From: Bacteroidota bacterium
GTDB taxonomy: Bacteria > Bacteroidota > Bacteroidia > Bacteroidales > UBA6013
Length of the DNA: 64,000 bases
NCBI GenBank assembly: GCA_020048645.1
Contig: JAIFMG010000146.1
Span: 1-64,000, forward strand
Direction: 5' to 3'
In this document: positions 5,619 through 63,390 of the stretch, one piece after another
Layout: each line of letters opens with the position of its first letter
Numbering within the stretch: the stretch's first letter is position 1
Position numbers and translations under genes: made by a program
Notes under the pieces: model-generated
What the model was told of the DNA's origin: nothing
Database searches by the model: none
What the model saw: the letters and a program-made list of their open reading frames with translations, nothing else

Positions 5619-6173
5619 TTACTTCTTGGTCTTCTTGGGCGAGATGAACATGATCATCCGCTTTCCTTCCAGCTTGGGCATCTGCTCGACCTTCCCTACT
5701 TCCTCTAGCTCCACCGCGAAGCGGAGCAGGACCTCGGTGCCCCTGTCCTTGAACAGGATGGAACGGCCCTTGAAGAAGACGAAGGCCTTGACCTTGGCCC
5801 CTTCGCTCAAGAATTTCCGGGCATGGATGAGCTTGAAGTTGAAGTCATGGTCATCGACGTTCGGTCCGAAGCGGATTTCCTTTATGGAAACTTTCTGGGC
5901 CTTGGCCTTGAGCTCCTTGTTCTTCTTCTTCTGCTGAAACAAGAACTTGTTGTAGTCAACAATTTTGCAAACTGGTGGTTTGGCCGTTGGCGAGATCTCG
6001 ACAAGGTCCATCTCGAGCTGCTCGGCCAGCTTTATGGCCTGCTCGATGGGCATGATGCCCTGTTCGGCGACGTTCTCGCCAACCACCCTGACCATGGGCA
6101 CACGGATTTGCTCATTTATCCGATAGCGGATCTGGTCAGCGTTGCTTTGCGATTTCTGATGCGTTTTAGCTAT
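5619..6173 (-). CDS. infC: Translation initiation factor IF-3 (apparent ATA start)
   Basis: [77 protein letters not shown]...; AGGAGG (6187..6182) 8 nt before ATA at 6173..6171; in-frame TGA two codons upstream; no ATG/GTG/TTG before GTG 6101. Confidence 0.94.
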
Positions 6174-6200
6174 GGTTCAGTCCTCCTGATTGGTTAGTAA

Positions 6201-8153
6201 TTAGTTTTCTTGATTGGTCTTCAGCTCGTTCTGGACCTCTTGGTTGAGGAAGTCGGCGAAGGCGGCGAGCTCCATGCTGCCCAGGTCTCCTTGGCCTTGG
6301 CGCCGGACGGAAACCGTCCGGGTCTGCTCCTCCTTCTCGCCCACCACCAAAAGGAAGGGGATGCGCTTGAGCTCGTTGTCGCGGATCTTGCGCCCTATCT
6401 TCTCGTTCCGGAAGTCCACCTGGCCGCGAATATCGGAATTCTTTAGGAAATCCGAAACGGTCTGGGCGTATGGGTTGAACTTTTCGCTGATGGGCAGGAT
6501 GACGATCTGCTCGGGGGTGAGCCACAGCGGGAACTTGCCGGCGGTATGCTCGATCAGGATGGCCACGAAGCGCTCCATCGAGCCGAAGGGGGCGCGGTGG
6601 ATCATGACCGGGCGGTGCGTCTGGTTGTCGCTGCCCTTGTACTCCAGCTCGAAGCGCTCGGGCAGGTTGTAGTCCACCTGGATGGTGCCCAACTGCCACT
6701 TGCGGCCCAGCACGTCGCGCACCATGAAGTCGAGCTTGGGGCCGTAGAAGGCGGCCTCGCCCAGCTCCACGGTCGTCTTGAGGCCCTTCTCCTGGGCCGC
6801 CTCGATGATGGCCTTCTCGGCCTTCTCCCAGTTCTCGTCGCTGCCGATGTACTTGTCGCGGTCGTCGGGGTCGCGCAGCGAGACCTGGGCCTCGTAGTCC
6901 TCGAACTTCATGGTCCGGAAGACGTAGAGGATGATGTCGATGACCTTCTTGAACTCGTCCTTGAGCTGGTCGGGGCGGCAGAAGATGTGGGCGTCGTCCT
7001 GGGTGAAGCCCCGCACGCGGGTCAGGCCGTGCAGCTCGCCGCTCTGCTCGTAGCGATAGACGGTGCCGAACTCGGCGTAGCGCACCGGCAGGTCCTTGTA
7101 GGAGAACTGCATGCTGCGGTAGATCTCGCAGTGGTGCGGGCAGTTCATGGGCTTGAGCAGGAACTCCTCGCCCTCGGCGGGCGTATGGATGGGCTGGAAG
7201 GAGTCCTTGCCGTACTTGGCGTAGTGGCCCGAGGTAACGTAGAGCTCCTTCTGGCCGATGTGCGGGGTGATGACCTGCTGGTAGCCCTGCTCGGCCTGCA
7301 GCTTGCGCAGGAAGTTCTCCAGACGGTCGCGCAGGGCGGCGCCCTTGGGCAGCCAGAGCGGCAGGCCCTGGCCCACCCGCTGCGAGAAGGTGAACAGCTC
7401 CAGCTCCTTGCCGAGCTTGCGGTGGTCGCGCTTCTTGGCCTCCTCTATCTTCTCGAGGTAGTCGGCCAGCATCTTCTGCTGCGGGAATGAGACGCCGTAG
7501 AGCCGCGTGAGCTGCTTGCGCTTCTCGTCGCCGCGCCAGTACGCGCCCGCCAGGCTGGTTATCTTGATCGCCTTGACCCAGCCCGTGTCGGGGATGTGCG
7601 GCCCGCGGCAGAGGTCGGTGAAGCCGCCTTGCTTGTAGAAGGTGATGCTGCCGTCCTCGAGGCCTTCGAGCAGCTCGAGCTTGTAGGGGTCGCCCTTTTC
7701 CTGGAAGTAGGCCACGGCCTCCTGCTTGGAGACCTCGCTCCGCTCGAACGCGCTCTTGCGCTTGGCCAGCTCGAGCATCTTCTCCTCGATCGCGGCGAAG
7801 TCGGAGTCGGTGAGCGACCTTCCGTCGCCCAGGTCAACGTCGTAGTAGAAGCCGCTCTCGATGGGAGGCCCGATGCCGAACTTCACGCCGGGGTAGAGCG
7901 CCTCCAGCGCCTCGGCCATCAGGTGGGCCGACGAGTGCCAGAAGGCCATCTTGCCCTGGGGGTCGTCGAAGGTGTGCAGCACGAAGGAACAGTCCGACCC
8001 GATGGGCCGGGAAAGGTCCCAGACTTGCCCGTTGACGCTACAGGCTATGACCTTCTTGGCCAAGCTGTTGCTGATGCTCTGGGCGACTTGCAGTCCGGTG
8101 GTGCCTGGCGCGTACTCGCGGCGCGAGCCATCGGGAAGGGAGATTTGGATCAT
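6201..8153 (-). CDS. thrS: Threonyl-tRNA synthetase
   Basis: 650 aa; TGS domain, [63 protein letters not shown] motifs. Confidence 0.98.
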
Positions 8154-8259
8154 GTTCTGCTGTTGTTCTGGAAAATTGGCCCGCGAATATAATCGGATTT
8201 GGGCAAATAACCCAGGGTCAAGAGGAGGAAAGTGTCGCGGGGCAAAGACAAAAGCGGGC

Positions 8260-56830: not shown

Positions 56831-57775
56831 ATGAAGATCCTTTTCATCGGCTCCAAGCGGTTCGACTACGTGCAGGACCTGAGCTACTCGGGCCTGGTCA
56901 AGATCCTGGGAACCAAGAACGTCATCGAATACCAGTGGAACCCGAAATACCACTTCAAGCTCAAGGAATACCCCAAGAACCTCGGCTACCAGCCCGGATT
57001 TCCGCTCAAGGGCATTTTCAGGCGCAAGACGGACTACGACATGGTGCTGGTGGCCTCGAACAAGCCCGACGCCATCAAGGCCTACCTGGCTCTGGTCCAG
57101 CGGATTCCGGCCAAGGTTCCCGTGGTGTTCGTCGATGGCGGCGACCGTCCGGAGCTGGGCGGCGACATTGTCAGGACCTCCGGCCAGGCGCTTCACGACG
57201 CATTTTTCGGGGCGCGGGAGCTCGATTTCGTCTTCAAGCGCGAAATGCTGAAGGAGGCCGCCTATCCGGCCCATGTCTTTCCCTTTCCGATCAGCGTGAA
57301 CCTCGACCGGATTCCCAAGTCCTTGGCCACCAGCAAGAAGTACGAAGTCGCCTTCTGGGCCGGGGCCGGCTCGCACCCCATCCGGCAGCGTGTTTTCGAG
57401 CGGCTCGAAGGCCAGTTCGACTGCCAGGCCAACGGCACACTGCCCAACCAGAGCCTGGGCAAGTTCGCCGCCACCCGCGTCTCGCTCAACTTCCGCGGCG
57501 GCGGCTGGGACACCCTGCGCTACTGGGAAATCCCCGCCACGGGCGCCTTCATGCTCAGCCAGCCGCCGGGCATCCTGATTCCCAACGACTTCCAAGACCG
57601 GCAGCACGTCGTCCACTGCCAGGAGGACCTCTCGGACCTGCTCGACCTCTGCGTCTATTACCTCCGCCACGAAAGCGAGCGCGAAGCCATCGCCCGCGCC
57701 GGGCACGAGCACATGCTCCGCTTCCACACCGACCGCGCCCGAGCCCAGTTCCTGCTCGAAACCGTCGGGCGATGA
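56831..57775 (+). CDS. CgeB/glycosyltransferase family 1-like protein
   Basis: MKILFIGSKRFDYVQDLSYSGLVKILG...FPFPISVNL...AFWAGAGSHPIRQRVFERL...DTLRYWEIPATGAFMLSQPPGILIPNDFQDRQHVVHCQEDLSDLLDLCVYYL. Confidence 0.82.
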   Translation: MKILFIGSKRFDYVQDLSYSGLVKILGTKNVIEYQWNPKYHFKLKEYPKNLGYQPGFPLKGIFRRKTDYDMVLVASNKPDAIKAYLALVQRIPAKVPVVFVDGGDRPELGGDIVRTSGQALHDAFFGARELDFVFKREMLKEAAYPAHVFPFPISVNLDRIPKSLATSKKYEVAFWAGAGSHPIRQRVFERLEGQFDCQANGTLPNQSLGKFAATRVSLNFRGGGWDTLRYWEIPATGAFMLSQPPGILIPNDFQDRQHVVHCQEDLSDLLDLCVYYLRHESEREAIARAGHEHMLRFHTDRARAQFLLETVGR

Positions 57776-57883
57776 GCCGAAGGCAATGCCCCGAGAGCGA
57801 TCGCCCGAAGGCTGGCCAAGCCCGAGTTTTTCGCTATCTTTGAACTGAAATCCTACCCGCGAAACCAACAGCGCCCCCCGGCC

Positions 57884-60673
57884 ATGAACGACAAGATCAA
57901 AGAACTGCTGGCCAAAGCAGCCAAGCTCGAAGCATCCGAAGACCACGAACAACTCGCCGAAGTCTATCGCGAGCTGGCCAGGCTGTACCACAAGGCCAAA
58001 AACAAAGAGAAAAACGAGGAGTATTTGGCGAAAGCGAAGGAGGAAAAGGAGAAAGCACCGGGACAAGCCAAAAGCGATGACCCATTGGCCAAGCTCGACT
58101 CTATCGCCAAAATGGAAGATTCACCCCGAAAATCGGCCCTGCTGGAAGAGCTTATTGCAAAAAATCCACAGAACGTGATTTTGAACTCCTTGTTCGCTGA
58201 GGCCAACTTCAGTCTCAGGCAATTTACCGAGGCCAAGCACTACTATGAGGTAGTTTTTAAGGAATTGGAGTCAAGCGGAGCAAATCCTGAACTTAGTGCC
58301 ATAACCGCATTTCGATTGGCTACGATTTATGAAGATAATGACATCGAACAATCAAAAACGTTCTACGAAAAAGCGATTTCACTAAAACCGAACTTTGCAG
58401 AGGCTTATTCCAATTTGGGAAATTTACTTGCAACGCATTATCAGGATTCCGAAAACGCCAAAGAATGCTATGAAAAAGCAATTTCGTTAATGCCTGATTA
58501 TCCAGAAGCCCTTTTCAATTTGGGTTATATTCTAGCAAATCATTACCATGAGAACGAAGAAGCCGAAAAAAACTTCGAAAAAGTAATAACCTTAATGCCT
58601 GACAATGCATTTGCTTACAGTAACTTAGGCGCCACACTAATACTTGACTACAACAAACGAGAAAGAGCAAAAGTGACCCTCGAAAAAGCTATTTCACTTA
58701 ATCCTGACTTCGCAACAGCTTATTCAAATTTAGGCATAGTATTGACAAAGCATTTCAAAGAACACGAGAAGGCCAAAGAAAACTTTGAAAAAGCGATTGG
58801 GCTAAATCCTGATTTCGCAGAGGCTTATTTCAATTTGGGCAATCTACTGGCAAGCCATTACAAGGAATACGAAAAATCCAAAGAAAATTACGAAAAAGCA
58901 ATTTCACTTAAGCCCGACTACGCAGAAGCTTATTCATATTTGGGTGAATTATTCACAACCCAACTACAGGAACATGATAAAGCCAAGGAGTGCTTCGAAA
59001 AAGCAATTTCTTTAAAGCCAGAAGACCCAGAAGCATTAATAAACTTTGGGTATCTATTGACAACACATTTTGAGGAGCATGAAAAAGCCAAAAAATGCTA
59101 CGAAAAAGCAATTTTGTTAAAGCCTGACGCTGCAGACGCAATTTTCGATTTAGGGTATCTATTTACAATACATTTCAAGGAGTATGAAAAGGCCAAGGAA
59201 TGCTTCGAAAGAGCAATTTCGTTAAAGCCTGACGATGCAGAAGCTTTTTCCAACTTAGGGTATTTATTGACAACACATTTCCAGGAGCACGAAAAGGCAA
59301 AAGAATGTTTCGAAAAAGCAATTTCGTTAAAGCCTGACATCTGGAGAGCACACCACTTTTTAGGAGTCACCCAGTATTTCATCGGTCAAATCGATGAAGC
59401 CAAATACCACATCACAAAAGCCATCGAACTGAACAAAGAATCGACTTTTTCGCGGCACGCGCTCGGTGAAATCATCGAGAAAGAACCTTTCATCACGGGG
59501 CTTACCATCCAGAAGCTGAGGCATTTGAGGGACTTGGAGATCGATTTGGATGAAAACGAGCCCAAGCACCTGATGCTGACGGGCATCAACGGCAGCGGGA
59601 AGACGACGGTCTTGCGGGAATGCAAGGAGTACCTGAAACGGGTGCTCGAAATGCCCATCGACGAGCTGTTCACGGAAAAGGCCCGGCAGGAGCTCCTGTT
59701 TCCTAAGGACTACGCGCTGATAGTCAAGCTCAACGGCAAGAGCCCGCTGGACCTGCGCTACGCCTACGAAAGCGGCAGGCTGATTGTCAAGTACCTGGGG
59801 GCCAACACGGGCCTGGAGGGCAACCGGGCGCTGAACGCGCGGGGCGTCGAAACGGTGGAGAAGGTGGCCCTGCCCTGGATCAACCGCATCGAGGAGAACC
59901 TGGCCGACAAGATCGTGTCCTACCTGGTGGACCAGGACTACAACAGGCTGCGGGCCTTCCGCAACAAGGACGAGGCGACCTACAAGGCCATCGACGCCTG
60001 GTTCGAGCGGTTCTTGGAAATCCTCCAGTCGTTCGACGAGGGCATCGAGGGGCTGGAGTACGCGGAGGCCGACAAGCGGCACAGCTTCATCCTGAAGGTG
60101 AAGAACCCGCTCAACCCCAACGAGTTGACCCCGGTGGAGTTCCACGAACTGCCGGACGGCTTCAAGGCCATGTTCAAGATCGTCTTCGAGGTGATGCTTC
60201 AGATGCAGAGCAAGGTCGAGCTGAGCTACTTCTTGCCGGGCATCGTGATGATCGACGAGCCGGAGCTGTTCCTGCACGTGCGCCTGCAAGAGCGGGTCCT
60301 GCCGACGCTGACCAAGCTGTTTCCGAACATCCAGTTCATCGTGGCCACGCATTCGCCCTTCGTCCTGCGCTCGATCCCGAACGCGGTGATCTACGACCTG
60401 GGCAAGAAAATCCGCCTCGAAAACCTCTCGGAGGTGCCCGTCAGCTACCTGAACGACTACTACTTCCGGCAAAGCCCAGAGGATGTGGCGAATATCTTGT
60501 CGAAGCTGAAAGAGTTTGAGCGACTGATCGAGGGCTACCGCGAGGGCAAGCTGACGCAAGAGGAGCGCGAGCGCCTGGCGGAGCTGGAGGTCTTCCTCGA
60601 TGAAAACGCGCCCTACGTCTCGGATAAGGACTACACCCGGTTCAAGGAAAACCAGAAATTCCTCTACGAATGA
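57884..60673 (+). CDS. TPR-array protein fused to ABC/RecF-OLD-type ATPase (PtuA-like)
   Basis: N-term MNDKIKELLAKAAKLEASEDHEQLAEVYRELARLYHKAKNK; ~10-11 TPR-like units of 35 aa; ATPase HLMLTGINGSGKTTVL (Walker A), GIVMIDEPELFLHVRLQERVLPTL (Walker B), IQFIVATHSPFVLRSI (H-loop); no TOPRIM seen. Confidence 0.9.
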   Translation: MNDKIKELLAKAAKLEASEDHEQLAEVYRELARLYHKAKNKEKNEEYLAKAKEEKEKAPGQAKSDDPLAKLDSIAKMEDSPRKSALLEELIAKNPQNVILNSLFAEANFSLRQFTEAKHYYEVVFKELESSGANPELSAITAFRLATIYEDNDIEQSKTFYEKAISLKPNFAEAYSNLGNLLATHYQDSENAKECYEKAISLMPDYPEALFNLGYILANHYHENEEAEKNFEKVITLMPDNAFAYSNLGATLILDYNKRERAKVTLEKAISLNPDFATAYSNLGIVLTKHFKEHEKAKENFEKAIGLNPDFAEAYFNLGNLLASHYKEYEKSKENYEKAISLKPDYAEAYSYLGELFTTQLQEHDKAKECFEKAISLKPEDPEALINFGYLLTTHFEEHEKAKKCYEKAILLKPDAADAIFDLGYLFTIHFKEYEKAKECFERAISLKPDDAEAFSNLGYLLTTHFQEHEKAKECFEKAISLKPDIWRAHHFLGVTQYFIGQIDEAKYHITKAIELNKESTFSRHALGEIIEKEPFITGLTIQKLRHLRDLEIDLDENEPKHLMLTGINGSGKTTVLRECKEYLKRVLEMPIDELFTEKARQELLFPKDYALIVKLNGKSPLDLRYAYESGRLIVKYLGANTGLEGNRALNARGVETVEKVALPWINRIEENLADKIVSYLVDQDYNRLRAFRNKDEATYKAIDAWFERFLEILQSFDEGIEGLEYAEADKRHSFILKVKNPLNPNELTPVEFHELPDGFKAMFKIVFEVMLQMQSKVELSYFLPGIVMIDEPELFLHVRLQERVLPTLTKLFPNIQFIVATHSPFVLRSIPNAVIYDLGKKIRLENLSEVPVSYLNDYYFRQSPEDVANILSKLKEFERLIEGYREGKLTQEERERLAELEVFLDENAPYVSDKDYTRFKENQKFLYE

Positions 60674-61308
60674 TCCGCATCGAAAGAAGCACCAAGCCAA
60701 GGGCTCCGTTCAAGTGCACCGATTCCGAAATTAAGGAACGGATCCACGACGACTTCCTTCACCTTTGCTATGTTTGTGAGGAGTATGTAGCCACAAGCTA
60801 CGAGATTGACCATTTCTTCCCCAAAGGCCAGGTGGAGTTCAAGCATTTGGAGCACGATTGGGACAATCTTTTTTGCATCTGCCCCAAATGCAACCAGCAG
60901 AGGCCGAAGGATATCAACACGAAGGGCAAAGAGGTGCTGGACAGTTGCAAGGACGATGTGGAAACCCGGCTGCGCTTGCGGTTTGTTGGGCAACGGGTGG
61001 AGGTGCTGGCCACCGACCCAGGGGACGAGAAGGCCAAAAACACGAAAAATCTGCTGGATCGGATCTACAATGGCATCGGCGCCACGCCAGGCACGCGCGC
61101 GCACCTCGACAGACGGGAGGCGATTCAGAAAATCATAAAGAAATTTGAAGAACAGGTCGAAAAGTTCAAAAAGAACGACGTGTTCAAAAGCGAAGTCGTG
61201 GAGCGGCTGGCGAAGGATTCGCGAAGCGATTACAGCTCCTTCGTAACGTTCAAGCGGCAGTGGATACGGGACCACCACCCGGAGCTGGCGGAGCTGATTC
61301 CGGATTGA
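60670..61308 (+). CDS. HNH endonuclease (PtuB/TIGR02646-like)
   Basis: LCYVCEEYVATSYEIDHFFPKGQVEFKHLEHDWDNLFCICPKCNQQR (CxxC...DHF..K...WDNL...CxxCN); ATGA overlap with the upstream ATPase gene. Confidence 0.9.
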   Translation: MIRIERSTKPRAPFKCTDSEIKERIHDDFLHLCYVCEEYVATSYEIDHFFPKGQVEFKHLEHDWDNLFCICPKCNQQRPKDINTKGKEVLDSCKDDVETRLRLRFVGQRVEVLATDPGDEKAKNTKNLLDRIYNGIGATPGTRAHLDRREAIQKIIKKFEEQVEKFKKNDVFKSEVVERLAKDSRSDYSSFVTFKRQWIRDHHPELAELIPD

Positions 61309-61524: not shown

Positions 61525-62085
61525 ATGGAAAATTTAGAACCGTATAGAATAGAGGGCTTGGATTTAAGCCTCCAACGCAAAGGTGATCTTTTGTACCACG
61601 AGGGGCCCCTATTGTCTCACTTTGTGAACGCGCAAAACCCTGATGAACACTACTTCTACAAGTGGAGTGATTGCGATGACCTGCACAATCGCTGGCTAAT
61701 TTTTGGTATCTCCACCGAAAACTTGAGCTTCTTTTTTGATGAAAAATTGTCATTGTTGGCCTTGATTCAGAAAACCAACTTCTTGTTTTTTGTGGACCTT
61801 GACACCAACCTGAATACCGTCAACACATTCGTTTGTCCAACACAAAAAATACCTTCCGATTACCTTCCTTCAGAAAGGTCATTTTTTAAGGAAAGCCAAT
61901 ACGAACAATACGCAATATCCCTTAGAAACGATTTGAAGCAGGAAAAAAAAGATGCGAGCGAACATAACTTTTACCCCATTTTACTCAAAGAAATGATTTC
62001 CATCAAGGAAACCCAAGAGCGGCAAAATTTGTTGCTGAACTTGATCATGAAAAATCTTGATAAAAAACCGCATCTTTCCGACTAA
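61525..62085 (+). CDS. Hypothetical protein (possibly DUF6575-like)
   Basis: 186 aa; DEHYFYKWSDCDDLHNRWLIFGIST...; AT-rich. Confidence 0.65.
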   Translation: MENLEPYRIEGLDLSLQRKGDLLYHEGPLLSHFVNAQNPDEHYFYKWSDCDDLHNRWLIFGISTENLSFFFDEKLSLLALIQKTNFLFFVDLDTNLNTVNTFVCPTQKIPSDYLPSERSFFKESQYEQYAISLRNDLKQEKKDASEHNFYPILLKEMISIKETQERQNLLLNLIMKNLDKKPHLSD

Positions 62086-62230
62086 TTCTGCTTTGCAAAT
62101 TCATGGATTCAAATAAGGTAATAAGGTTGTTTTGACTCCGGCAATTGATTTTCTACTAAGGTTTTACCCAAAAATAAGGTCTTATCATCCCATCTGCAAC
62201 GATAACCTTGTGCCATGTTGCTTTCGATGA
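62086..62230. repeat. Intergenic repeat copy 1 (pairs with 63247-63390)
   Basis: ttctgctttgcaaattcatggattcaaataaggtaataaggttgttttgactccggcaattgattttctactaaggttttacccaaaaataaggtctt... nearly identical to the second copy. Confidence 0.93.
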
Positions 62231-62300
62231 TGCAATGTCCCAATTTCCCATTCCCGAAAAGTTTGGGACGTTCTGACAATGCCCATCGCAGGATTATCTC

Positions 62301-62850
62301 GCCCCATCCGGCAGCGTGTTTTCGAGCGGCTCGAAGGCCAGTTCGACTGCCAGGCCAACGGCACACTGCCCAACCAGAGCCTGGGCAAGTTCGCCGCCAC
62401 CCGCGTCTCGCTCAACTTCCGCGGCGGCGGCTGGGACCCCCTGCGCTACTGGGAAATCCCCGCCACGGGCGCGAGCGCGAAGCCATCGCCCGCGCCGGGC
62501 ACGAGCACCTGCTCCGCTTCCACACCGACCGCGCCCGAGCCCAGTTCCTGCTCGAAACCGTCGGGCGATGAGCCGAAGGCAATGCCCCGACACCGATCGC
62601 CCGAAGGCTGGCCAAGCCCGAGTTTTTCGCTATCTTTGAACTGAAATCCAACCCGCTCAACCAACATCGCCCCCCGGCATGAACGACAAAATCAAAGAAC
62701 TGGAGGCCAAAGCCGCCAAGCTCGAAGCATCCGAAGACCACCCACAACTCCCCGAAGTCTATCGCGAGCTGGCCCGGCTGTACCACAAGGCCAAAAACAA
62801 AGAGAAAAACGAAGAGTTTCTGGCGAAAGTGAGGGCGGCTAAGGAGAAAA
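62301..62850 (+). pseudogene. Decayed duplicate of the 57375-58053 segment (glycosyltransferase 3' end + promoter + 5' end of TPR-ATPase gene)
   Basis: Near-identical DNA from ccccatccggcagcgtgttttcgagc onward with an internal 130-bp deletion relative to the original (57547-57676), then truncated MNDKIKELEAKAAKLEASEDHPQLPEVYRELARLYHKAKNKEKNEEFLAK. Confidence 0.92.
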
Positions 62851-63246
62851 TTGAGGGAACCCAAGCCTGGATTCAAGTCATTAACGCAATAGGTGATTCT
62901 TGATTTTGATATTGGCTTGCGCCCCTTCGGGGCTTTCGGGGCGAAGTCTGCGCGTTCGAAAGGGGCGTAGCCCTGGCATCTTATGCCAAGTTGCGTTCAA
63001 CGGTGATGGATACGAATCGTCGGCATCCTGCGAAATTAGGGTCGGAAGGGAGGCGGATGAGTCGGTTTTGATGAATAAGGGAATCTTCCTCAAAACTTGA
63101 GTCCAGTATAAAAACCATTAGGGGATTTGTCCACGAAAGGCACGAAGGGCACGAAAATTTTTTGAAATCAAAATTGGGTCCAGCATAAAGAAAGGGAATT
63201 TTGAAATGACCTTTTTGGACCGCGCCCAAACTTAATTTTCATCCGT

Positions 63247-63390
63247 TCTACTTTGCAAATTCATGGATTCAAATAAGGTAATAAGGTTGTTTTGACTCCG
63301 TCAATTGATTTTCTACTAAGGTTTTACCCAAAAATAAGGTCTTGTCATGGCATCTGCAATGATAACCTTGTGCCAAGTTGCTTTCGGTGG
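63247..63390. repeat. Intergenic repeat copy 2 (pairs with 62086-62230)
   Basis: ttctactttgcaaattcatggattcaaataaggtaataaggttgttttgactccgtcaattgattttctactaaggttttacccaaaaataaggtctt... Confidence 0.93.

What the first reader, a model, noticed from the sequence alone, without database searches (positions are those of the whole stretch)
57884..61308. Septu-like ATPase + HNH pair with a TPR-array fused to the ATPase
Seen: a 929-aa ORF with ~10-11 TPR-like units followed by an ABC/RecF-OLD-type ATPase (GINGSGKTTVL, IVMIDEPELFLH, ATHSPFV). Its stop overlaps by ATGA (60670-60673) the start of an HNH protein with CxxC...DHFFPK...WDNL...CPKCN. Knowledge: Septu anti-phage systems pair an ATPase (PtuA) with an HNH nuclease (PtuB). 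Inference: this is a PtuAB-type module in which the ATPase has gained a large N-terminal TPR array, perhaps a protein-sensing or oligomerisation domain. I do not know a standard Septu subtype with this architecture, so it may be a new variant.
Basis: partly seen in the sequence, partly recalled or inferred. Interest (0 to 1): 0.87.

Follow-up and report, generated by a model that had tools for sequence, protein, structure and literature searches.

The report
Septu defence with swappable TPR array
This two-gene bacterial locus is a version of the Septu anti-phage system whose ATPase carries a long, fast-changing repeat domain at its front, apparently an interchangeable sensor, and the same kind of repeat is joined to several other ATPase-nuclease pairs in related bacteria.

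Summary
In detail: a 929-aa ORF (57884-60673) with 11 TPR units plus an ABC ATPase overlaps by ATGA an intact HNH gene (60670-61308). Both match Septu models (PtuA 1e-61, PtuB 7e-28), and the PtuB model matches solved PtuB structures. The fusion is not unique: 14 TPR-PtuA proteins, with 1-17 units, were found in the same GTDB order (Bacteroidales). They form one 100/100-supported group, and all 13 with readable downstream DNA are followed by PtuB. About 790 genomes sampled by class and phylum gave no other. Arrays track genus rather than ATPase type. Close relatives keep the ATPase (97% identical) while the array differs (dS 0.72 versus 0.11). In the window the array has GC3 0.38 inside a gene whose ATPase is 0.85-0.98. 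Best reading: an exchangeable TPR sensor gating a Septu ATPase-HNH effector. Sensing and phage defence are inferred. I found no description of this architecture in the open-access library. New variant of a known kind; most relatives are metagenome-assembled genomes.

The parts
57884..58054 (+). N-terminal three-helix cap of TPR-PtuA (residues 1-57); its DNA is duplicated at 62670-62849
   Evidence: AlphaFold2 helices 2-18, 21-37, 41-57 at pLDDT ~94; direct repeat D4, 90%; alignment
58343..59494 (+). TPR array, 11 units of 35 aa (residues ~154-537), AT-rich (GC3 0.38)
   Evidence: Pfam TPR hits; unit positions; GC3; TPR superhelix model
59492..60673 (+). PtuA-type ABC ATPase domain (residues 537-929); Walker A GINGSGKT 567-574, Walker B VMIDEPE 788-794, ATHSPF 821-826
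   Evidence: PADLOC PtuA1 1e-61; invariant motif columns; PDB PtuA hits
57884..60673 (+). TPR-PtuA gene (929 aa)
   Evidence: intact ORF; family members
60670..61308 (+). PtuB, HNH nuclease (212 aa), overlaps the PtuA stop by ATGA
   Evidence: PADLOC PtuB1 7e-28; Pfam HNH 1.2e-5; conserved Cys/His/Asn; fold match to solved PtuB
62679..62903 (+). relic of a second TPR-PtuA-type gene: copy of the N-cap, then a stop after 74 codons
   Evidence: alignment of left and right copies
57371..58054 (+). left copy of flank repeat (end of glycosyltransferase gene + intergenic + N-cap)
   Evidence: direct repeats D2-D4; own-genome DNA search; alignment
62297..62849 (+). right copy of flank repeat, with a ~117-bp internal deletion
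   Evidence: direct repeats D2-D4; alignment

Best explanation
It is a Septu-type anti-phage module in which PtuA has a long N-terminal TPR superhelix that works as the exchangeable recognition part. Proposed steps: (1) TPR-PtuA and PtuB are co-translated and form an inactive PtuA-PtuB oligomer, as in known Septu/Ec78 complexes; (2) the concave face of the TPR array binds a protein or peptide that signals infection; (3) binding changes the nucleotide state or packing of the ATPase oligomer; (4) this licenses the PtuB HNH domain to cut nucleic acid (tRNA or DNA in known relatives) and stops phage production. Between lineages the array is replaced, expanded or shrunk while the ATPase-HNH core stays, giving new specificities on one effector chassis. 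Shown here: gene architecture, intact active-site motifs, family recurrence with PtuB, a single origin of the PtuA-TPR fusion, array exchange. Inferred: complex formation, ligand sensing, gating, defence and the substrate.
For: PtuA/PtuB identity. TPR-PtuA is followed by PtuB wherever the sequence is readable (L018 keeps the PtuB tail after a 100-N gap). 14 TPR-PtuA proteins lie on one side of a 100/100 branch from 43 non-TPR PtuA (106-row tree). Unit number 1-17 among the fused ATPases. The same array type sits on about five other ATPase types, nearly all with an HNH gene next door. L166/L167: ATPase 97% aa, dS 0.11, PtuB dS 0.06, array dS 0.72, and no array unit above 0.81 DNA identity against >=0.95 in the ATPase, so it is not an alignment artefact. 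The L166 N-cap is 73% like L233, whose ATPase is another type (26%), but 44% like L167. Window array GC3 0.38 versus ATPase 0.85-0.98 and other TPR genes of the genome 0.97. The four most variable unit positions (canonical 12, 2, 9, 13) are among the TPR ligand-contact positions of PMC1261162; differences between relatives concentrate there in two of four pairs.
Against: No phage, binding or biochemical data. Positions 2, 5, 9, 12, 13 vary in TPR families generally, so that test cannot separate a sensor from any other protein-binding role. PtuA without TPR defends in known Septu, so the array may be regulatory or for assembly. The window lies beside a glycosyltransferase gene, not in an obvious defence island. 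Most relatives are metagenome-assembled genomes, where repetitive arrays can be misjoined.
Confidence: 0.7

Rival explanations
1. The TPR array is an oligomerisation or scaffolding domain that arranges PtuA-PtuB complexes or docks them on a host protein; it does not read a phage signal.
For: Long TPR superhelices often build complexes (best fold hits include OGT, APC/C, BBSome). Unit number varies widely, which a loose scaffold would tolerate.
Against: A scaffold should co-evolve with its ATPase; instead arrays follow the genus and are shared across ATPase types and are replaced while the ATPase stays at 97%. Variation peaks on the concave face while several helix-B positions stay nearly fixed.
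Confidence: 0.15
2. The array is an inhibitory antitoxin-like domain (as RT-msDNA is for retron Eco7): it holds PtuAB off, and its release rather than ligand recognition activates the nuclease.
For: PtuAB of retron Eco7 is toxic when its RT-msDNA partner is absent (PMC11555353), and no reverse transcriptase was seen among the neighbouring genes read here, so another part must restrain or gate it.
Against: Does not by itself explain hyperdiversification of the array. It is compatible with sensing, since binding could relieve inhibition.
Confidence: 0.25
3. The locus is a decaying or non-functional Septu remnant whose array is junk expansion.
For: A truncated second copy (62679-62903) and a truncated PD-T4-10_B-like ORF lie next to it; dispersed repeats flank them.
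Against: Both ORFs are full length with all catalytic motifs; in L166/L167 ATPase dN/dS is 0.11 and PtuB 0.03, i.e. purifying selection in relatives.
Confidence: 0.07
4. The low-GC array inside the high-GC gene is an assembly chimera.
For: The genome is in 242 contigs and unnamed; repeats are prone to misassembly.
Against: The ORF is open across both junctions; units are only about 60-70% identical at DNA level, not long exact repeats; the last unit-to-ATPase junction (KAIELNKES..SR.AL) matches L166/L167; TPR-PtuA fusions recur in about ten genomes.
Confidence: 0.05

Closest known systems
Septu type I (PtuA + PtuB; E. coli PtuAB, PDB 8ee4/8eea)
   Same: ABC ATPase + HNH gene pair, same order, conserved Walker and HNH motifs; PtuA and PtuB hits by sequence and PtuB by fold; no reverse transcriptase found nearby
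   Different: Solved PtuA chains that match are 456-552 aa without a TPR array; the ~90 non-TPR relatives retrieved are mostly ~370-490 aa; the window protein has a 536-aa N-terminal extension
Septu type II / retron I-A (Ec78, Eco7)
   Same: Homologous PtuA and PtuB; PtuAB from Eco7 depletes tRNA-Tyr (PMC11555353)
   Different: No RT gene beside it; scores below NCBIfam cut-offs for Ec78 PtuA/PtuB; a TPR array stands where the retron has the RT-msDNA gate
AVAST (Avs) / bNACHT STAND NTPases
   Same: Repeat sensor (often TPR) joined to an NTPase that drives an effector; described in PMC10907252
   Different: Not a STAND NTPase; the array is N-terminal and the nuclease is a separate gene
Fungal NLRs with high-internal-conservation WD40 repeats (het-d/het-e)
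   Same: Homogenised repeat units with hypervariable contact sites and length changes (PMC12222747)
   Different: Eukaryotic, different repeat and NTPase; analogy only
DGR-diversified antigen sensors of multicellular bacteria
   Same: Proposed hypervariable immune sensor on a conserved chassis (PMC10907252)
   Different: No reverse transcriptase seen nearby; diversification here looks like repeat turnover and recombination

Membership tests
Septu (PtuAB) | PtuA: ABC/AAA_15/21-type ATPase homologous to PtuA | tested here: met
   PADLOC PtuA1 1e-61; PDB PtuA 8ee4 5.2e-19; Walker A/B and His intact
Septu (PtuAB) | PtuB: HNH nuclease encoded directly downstream | tested here: met
   ATGA overlap; PADLOC PtuB1 7e-28; fold match to PtuB in 9nnb/8eea
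Septu (PtuAB) | PtuA of ordinary architecture, without a large extra domain (not a formal requirement; marks a variant) | tested here: not met
   536-aa TPR-bearing extension; ~90 other PtuA lack it
Septu (PtuAB) | Protects against phages | not testable with these tools
   needs plaque assays
Septu type II / retron I-A | Reverse transcriptase (PtuC) gene next to ptuAB, with an msr-msd RNA | tested here: not met
   no RT among ORFs read from 53 kb to 64 kb and on to contig position 80 kb; no dedicated msr-msd search was run
Septu type II / retron I-A | PtuA/PtuB above the Ec78 equivalog cut-offs | tested here: not met
   NF041760 91 bits (cut-off 500), NF041761 32 bits (150), TIGR02646 29 bits (52)
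AVAST / STAND NTPase | STAND/NACHT NTPase domain | tested here: not met
   Pfam gives AAA_21-type ATPase and TPRs, no NACHT/NB-ARC
TPR-Septu clade (proposed here) | N-terminal TPR array of 35-36-aa units on a type A PtuA, PtuB downstream | tested here: met
   14 members in one 100/100-supported group

The most novel reading that the evidence does not exclude
A modular bacterial immune-receptor family: one type of homogenised but contact-site-hypervariable TPR array is shuffled by recombination among at least six ATPase-HNH effector pairs, in tandem clusters of up to five, so that a genome carries a repertoire of swappable sensors comparable to NLR gene clusters.
Probability: 0.45. Interest if true: 0.9.

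Novelty: new variant of a known kind. Interest (0 to 1): 0.78.

Why it matters
How Septu senses phage is open: the papers read describe effector activity, and for Eco7 the trigger is called unknown. A natural fusion of a fast-changing, protein-binding repeat array to PtuA marks where a signal could enter and makes the question testable by array swaps between close relatives (L166/L167 are nearly identical in ATPase and PtuB but have different arrays). It would also add a non-STAND ATPase family with NLR-like sensor turnover, and shows that Septu-like pairs are multi-copy, recombining gene families in some Bacteroidales.

Tried and rejected
Close relatives in plasmids and phages: one weak plasmid PtuB hit (Persicobacter), none in phages; the L017 ATPase in plasmids gave only weak, ordinary matches. 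Viral contigs: no TPR-fused PtuA recognised in the first scan; the second gave only distant ATPase matches and was not analysed further. Class- and phylum-wide samples (about 790 genomes) gave only non-TPR PtuA. Own genome: no second full TPR-PtuA and no donor for the array. The idea that the flank repeat is a transposon target-site duplication was dropped: it includes the gene's own start and looks like a tandem-duplication relic. The stand-alone TPR ORF in L168 was rejected as an artefact of a scaffold gap; the one in L165 (3545-4204) has no gap but resembles a truncated copy of its neighbour. Literature searches for TPR with Septu or retron found no description; the library is open-access only, and two key papers (Septu structure, ABC-ATPase classification) are not held. 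The dN/dS ratios above 1 in L169/L164 and L168/L172 rest on few or shuffled sites and are not used as proof of positive selection.

Full report
What is there. The window holds a 929-aa ORF (57884-60673) and a 212-aa ORF (60670-61308) overlapping by ATGA. The first has 11 TPR units with a 35-aa period, then an ABC ATPase; the second is an HNH protein. Against PADLOC the ATPase scores PtuA1 1e-61 and the HNH PtuB1 7e-28; NCBIfam's retron Ec78 PtuA/PtuB and TIGR02646 match only below their cut-offs. Profiles find solved PtuA (8ee4, 5e-19) and PtuB of the Ec78 complex (8e-9). The PtuB model (pLDDT 89) has PtuB chains as its seven best PDB hits, TM-score 0.56-0.63. The PtuA model (pLDDT 90, pTM 0.70) shows a three-helix cap, a TPR superhelix and the ATPase; its best fold hits are TPR superhelices. 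Walker A, Walker B, the His motif and the HNH/zinc residues are conserved across homologues.

Is the fusion unique? No. Nearest PtuA proteins in a phylum-wide sample are ordinary, about 400-460 aa. In a scan of 85,462 species genomes the two best-scoring loci, L017 (Bacteroidales bacterium) and L018 (a MAG labelled Rikenella microfusus), also carry TPRs; in the other retrieved loci no comparable TPR array was seen. A sample of 295 genomes of the same GTDB order gave more, for 14 usable TPR-PtuA proteins in all. Of these, 13 have readable downstream DNA and all 13 are followed by PtuB; L018 shows only the PtuB tail after a scaffold gap. In a tree of 57 ATPase domains the 14 TPR-PtuA lie on one side of a 100/100 branch; a 106-row quick tree agrees apart from one long-branch row of a different ATPase and one row cut at its 5' end by the contig edge. 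So PtuA and this array were most simply joined once in this lineage.

The array is shared. A TPR-array query against ten of these genomes found the same 35-36-aa unit at the N-terminus of other ATPases. By Walker A context these fall into about five further types (B-F), mostly with different best PADLOC PtuA models; the grouping is mine. Of 16 such proteins, 13 are followed by a PtuB- or HNH-family gene; two of the rest (L226, L229) are cut by contig ends and one (L227) has none. One 16.3-kb contig (G746:C36, read as L221 and L165) carries five such units in tandem, of types D, C, D, B and A.

The array is exchanged. (i) N-terminal caps often resemble those of other ATPase types in the same genome or genus more than those of the same type elsewhere; for example L166 (type A) shares 73% with L233 (type F, ATPase 26%) but 44% with L167, whose ATPase is 97% identical. 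(ii) L166 and L167: dS is 0.06 in PtuB, 0.11 in the ATPase and 0.72 in the array, with 7 versus 9 recognised units; no array unit of one exceeds 0.81 DNA identity in the other (0.77 away from the ATPase-proximal unit), while ATPase stretches reach 0.95-0.96. (iii) In L168/L172 array blocks are mostly 92-100% identical but in another order, while parts of the ATPase are strongly diverged. (iv) In the window gene, third-position GC is 0.67 in the cap, 0.38 in the array and 0.85-0.98 in the ATPase, against 0.97 in the matched TPR stretches of two other genes of the genome. The simplest reading is that the array was brought into a resident gene, or lags in amelioration.

Local history. The DNA from the end of the glycosyltransferase gene to the N-cap (57371-58054) is repeated at 62297-62849 at 90-98% with one internal deletion; there the N-cap continues to a stop after 74 codons. 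This is best read as the relic of a second, tandem TPR-PtuA-type gene, in line with tandem copies elsewhere. A copy of a dispersed repeat (over 40 copies in the genome) lies on either side of it, and a truncated PD-T4-10_B-like ORF lies between it and PtuB.

How it may work. Known PtuAB assemblies pair an ATPase oligomer with the HNH protein; activity of Septu EcB88 needs Walker and HNH residues and cuts the tRNA-Tyr variable loop; Eco7 PtuAB depletes tRNA-Tyr; another Septu was reported to target DNA (PMC13096335, PMC11555353). The trigger is described as unknown for Eco7. Here the array would be the input: the unit positions with the highest entropy are canonical 12, 2, 9 and 13, which PMC1261162 lists among the specificity-determining concave-face positions. 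Differences between related arrays are enriched at positions 2, 5, 9, 12, 13 in two of four pairs tested (odds ratios 6.6 and 13). TPRs vary at these positions in general, so this supports ligand binding but not a phage ligand specifically.

Limits. No phenotype was tested. Most relatives are MAGs; intact ORFs across junctions and recurrence in about ten genomes argue against chimeras but do not exclude some. The absence of a description holds for the open-access library searched; PADLOC-DB here is the 2023 release.

Noticed in passing
window 61525-62085: 186-aa ORF matching the first 142 of 353 positions of PD-T4-10_B (4e-29): probably a truncated second defence gene, ending just before a dispersed repeat.
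   Followed up: partly
window 62086-62229 and 63246-63389: Members of a dispersed ~100-144-nt repeat with over 40 copies in this genome, on both sides of the TPR-PtuA relic.
   Followed up: partly
L221 2042-2464 and G746:C36 10967-11377: A 136-140-aa ORF with near-identical start and end present twice between TPR-ATPase-HNH units of the tandem cluster; identity unknown.
   Followed up: no
L174 3624-4190; L176 4780-5531: PtuA-family proteins with other N-terminal domains: L174 has an extra ~150-aa region before 12 TPRs, L176 has ~200 aa without TPR; Pfam names neither N-terminal part.
   Followed up: partly
L166 5811-8182: A type F ATPase without a TPR array (6425-8182), with its own PtuB-like gene (5811-6428), sits directly upstream of a TPR-PtuA/PtuB pair.
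   Followed up: no
L182 3134-4932: TPR-PtuA split in two overlapping ORFs: frameshift or sequencing error; PtuB still follows.
   Followed up: no
L187 12710-14410 (G000 contig C48, downstream of the window): 566-aa AAA-ATPase_like + PDDEXK_9 protein, another possible mobile or conflict gene in the same contig.
   Followed up: no
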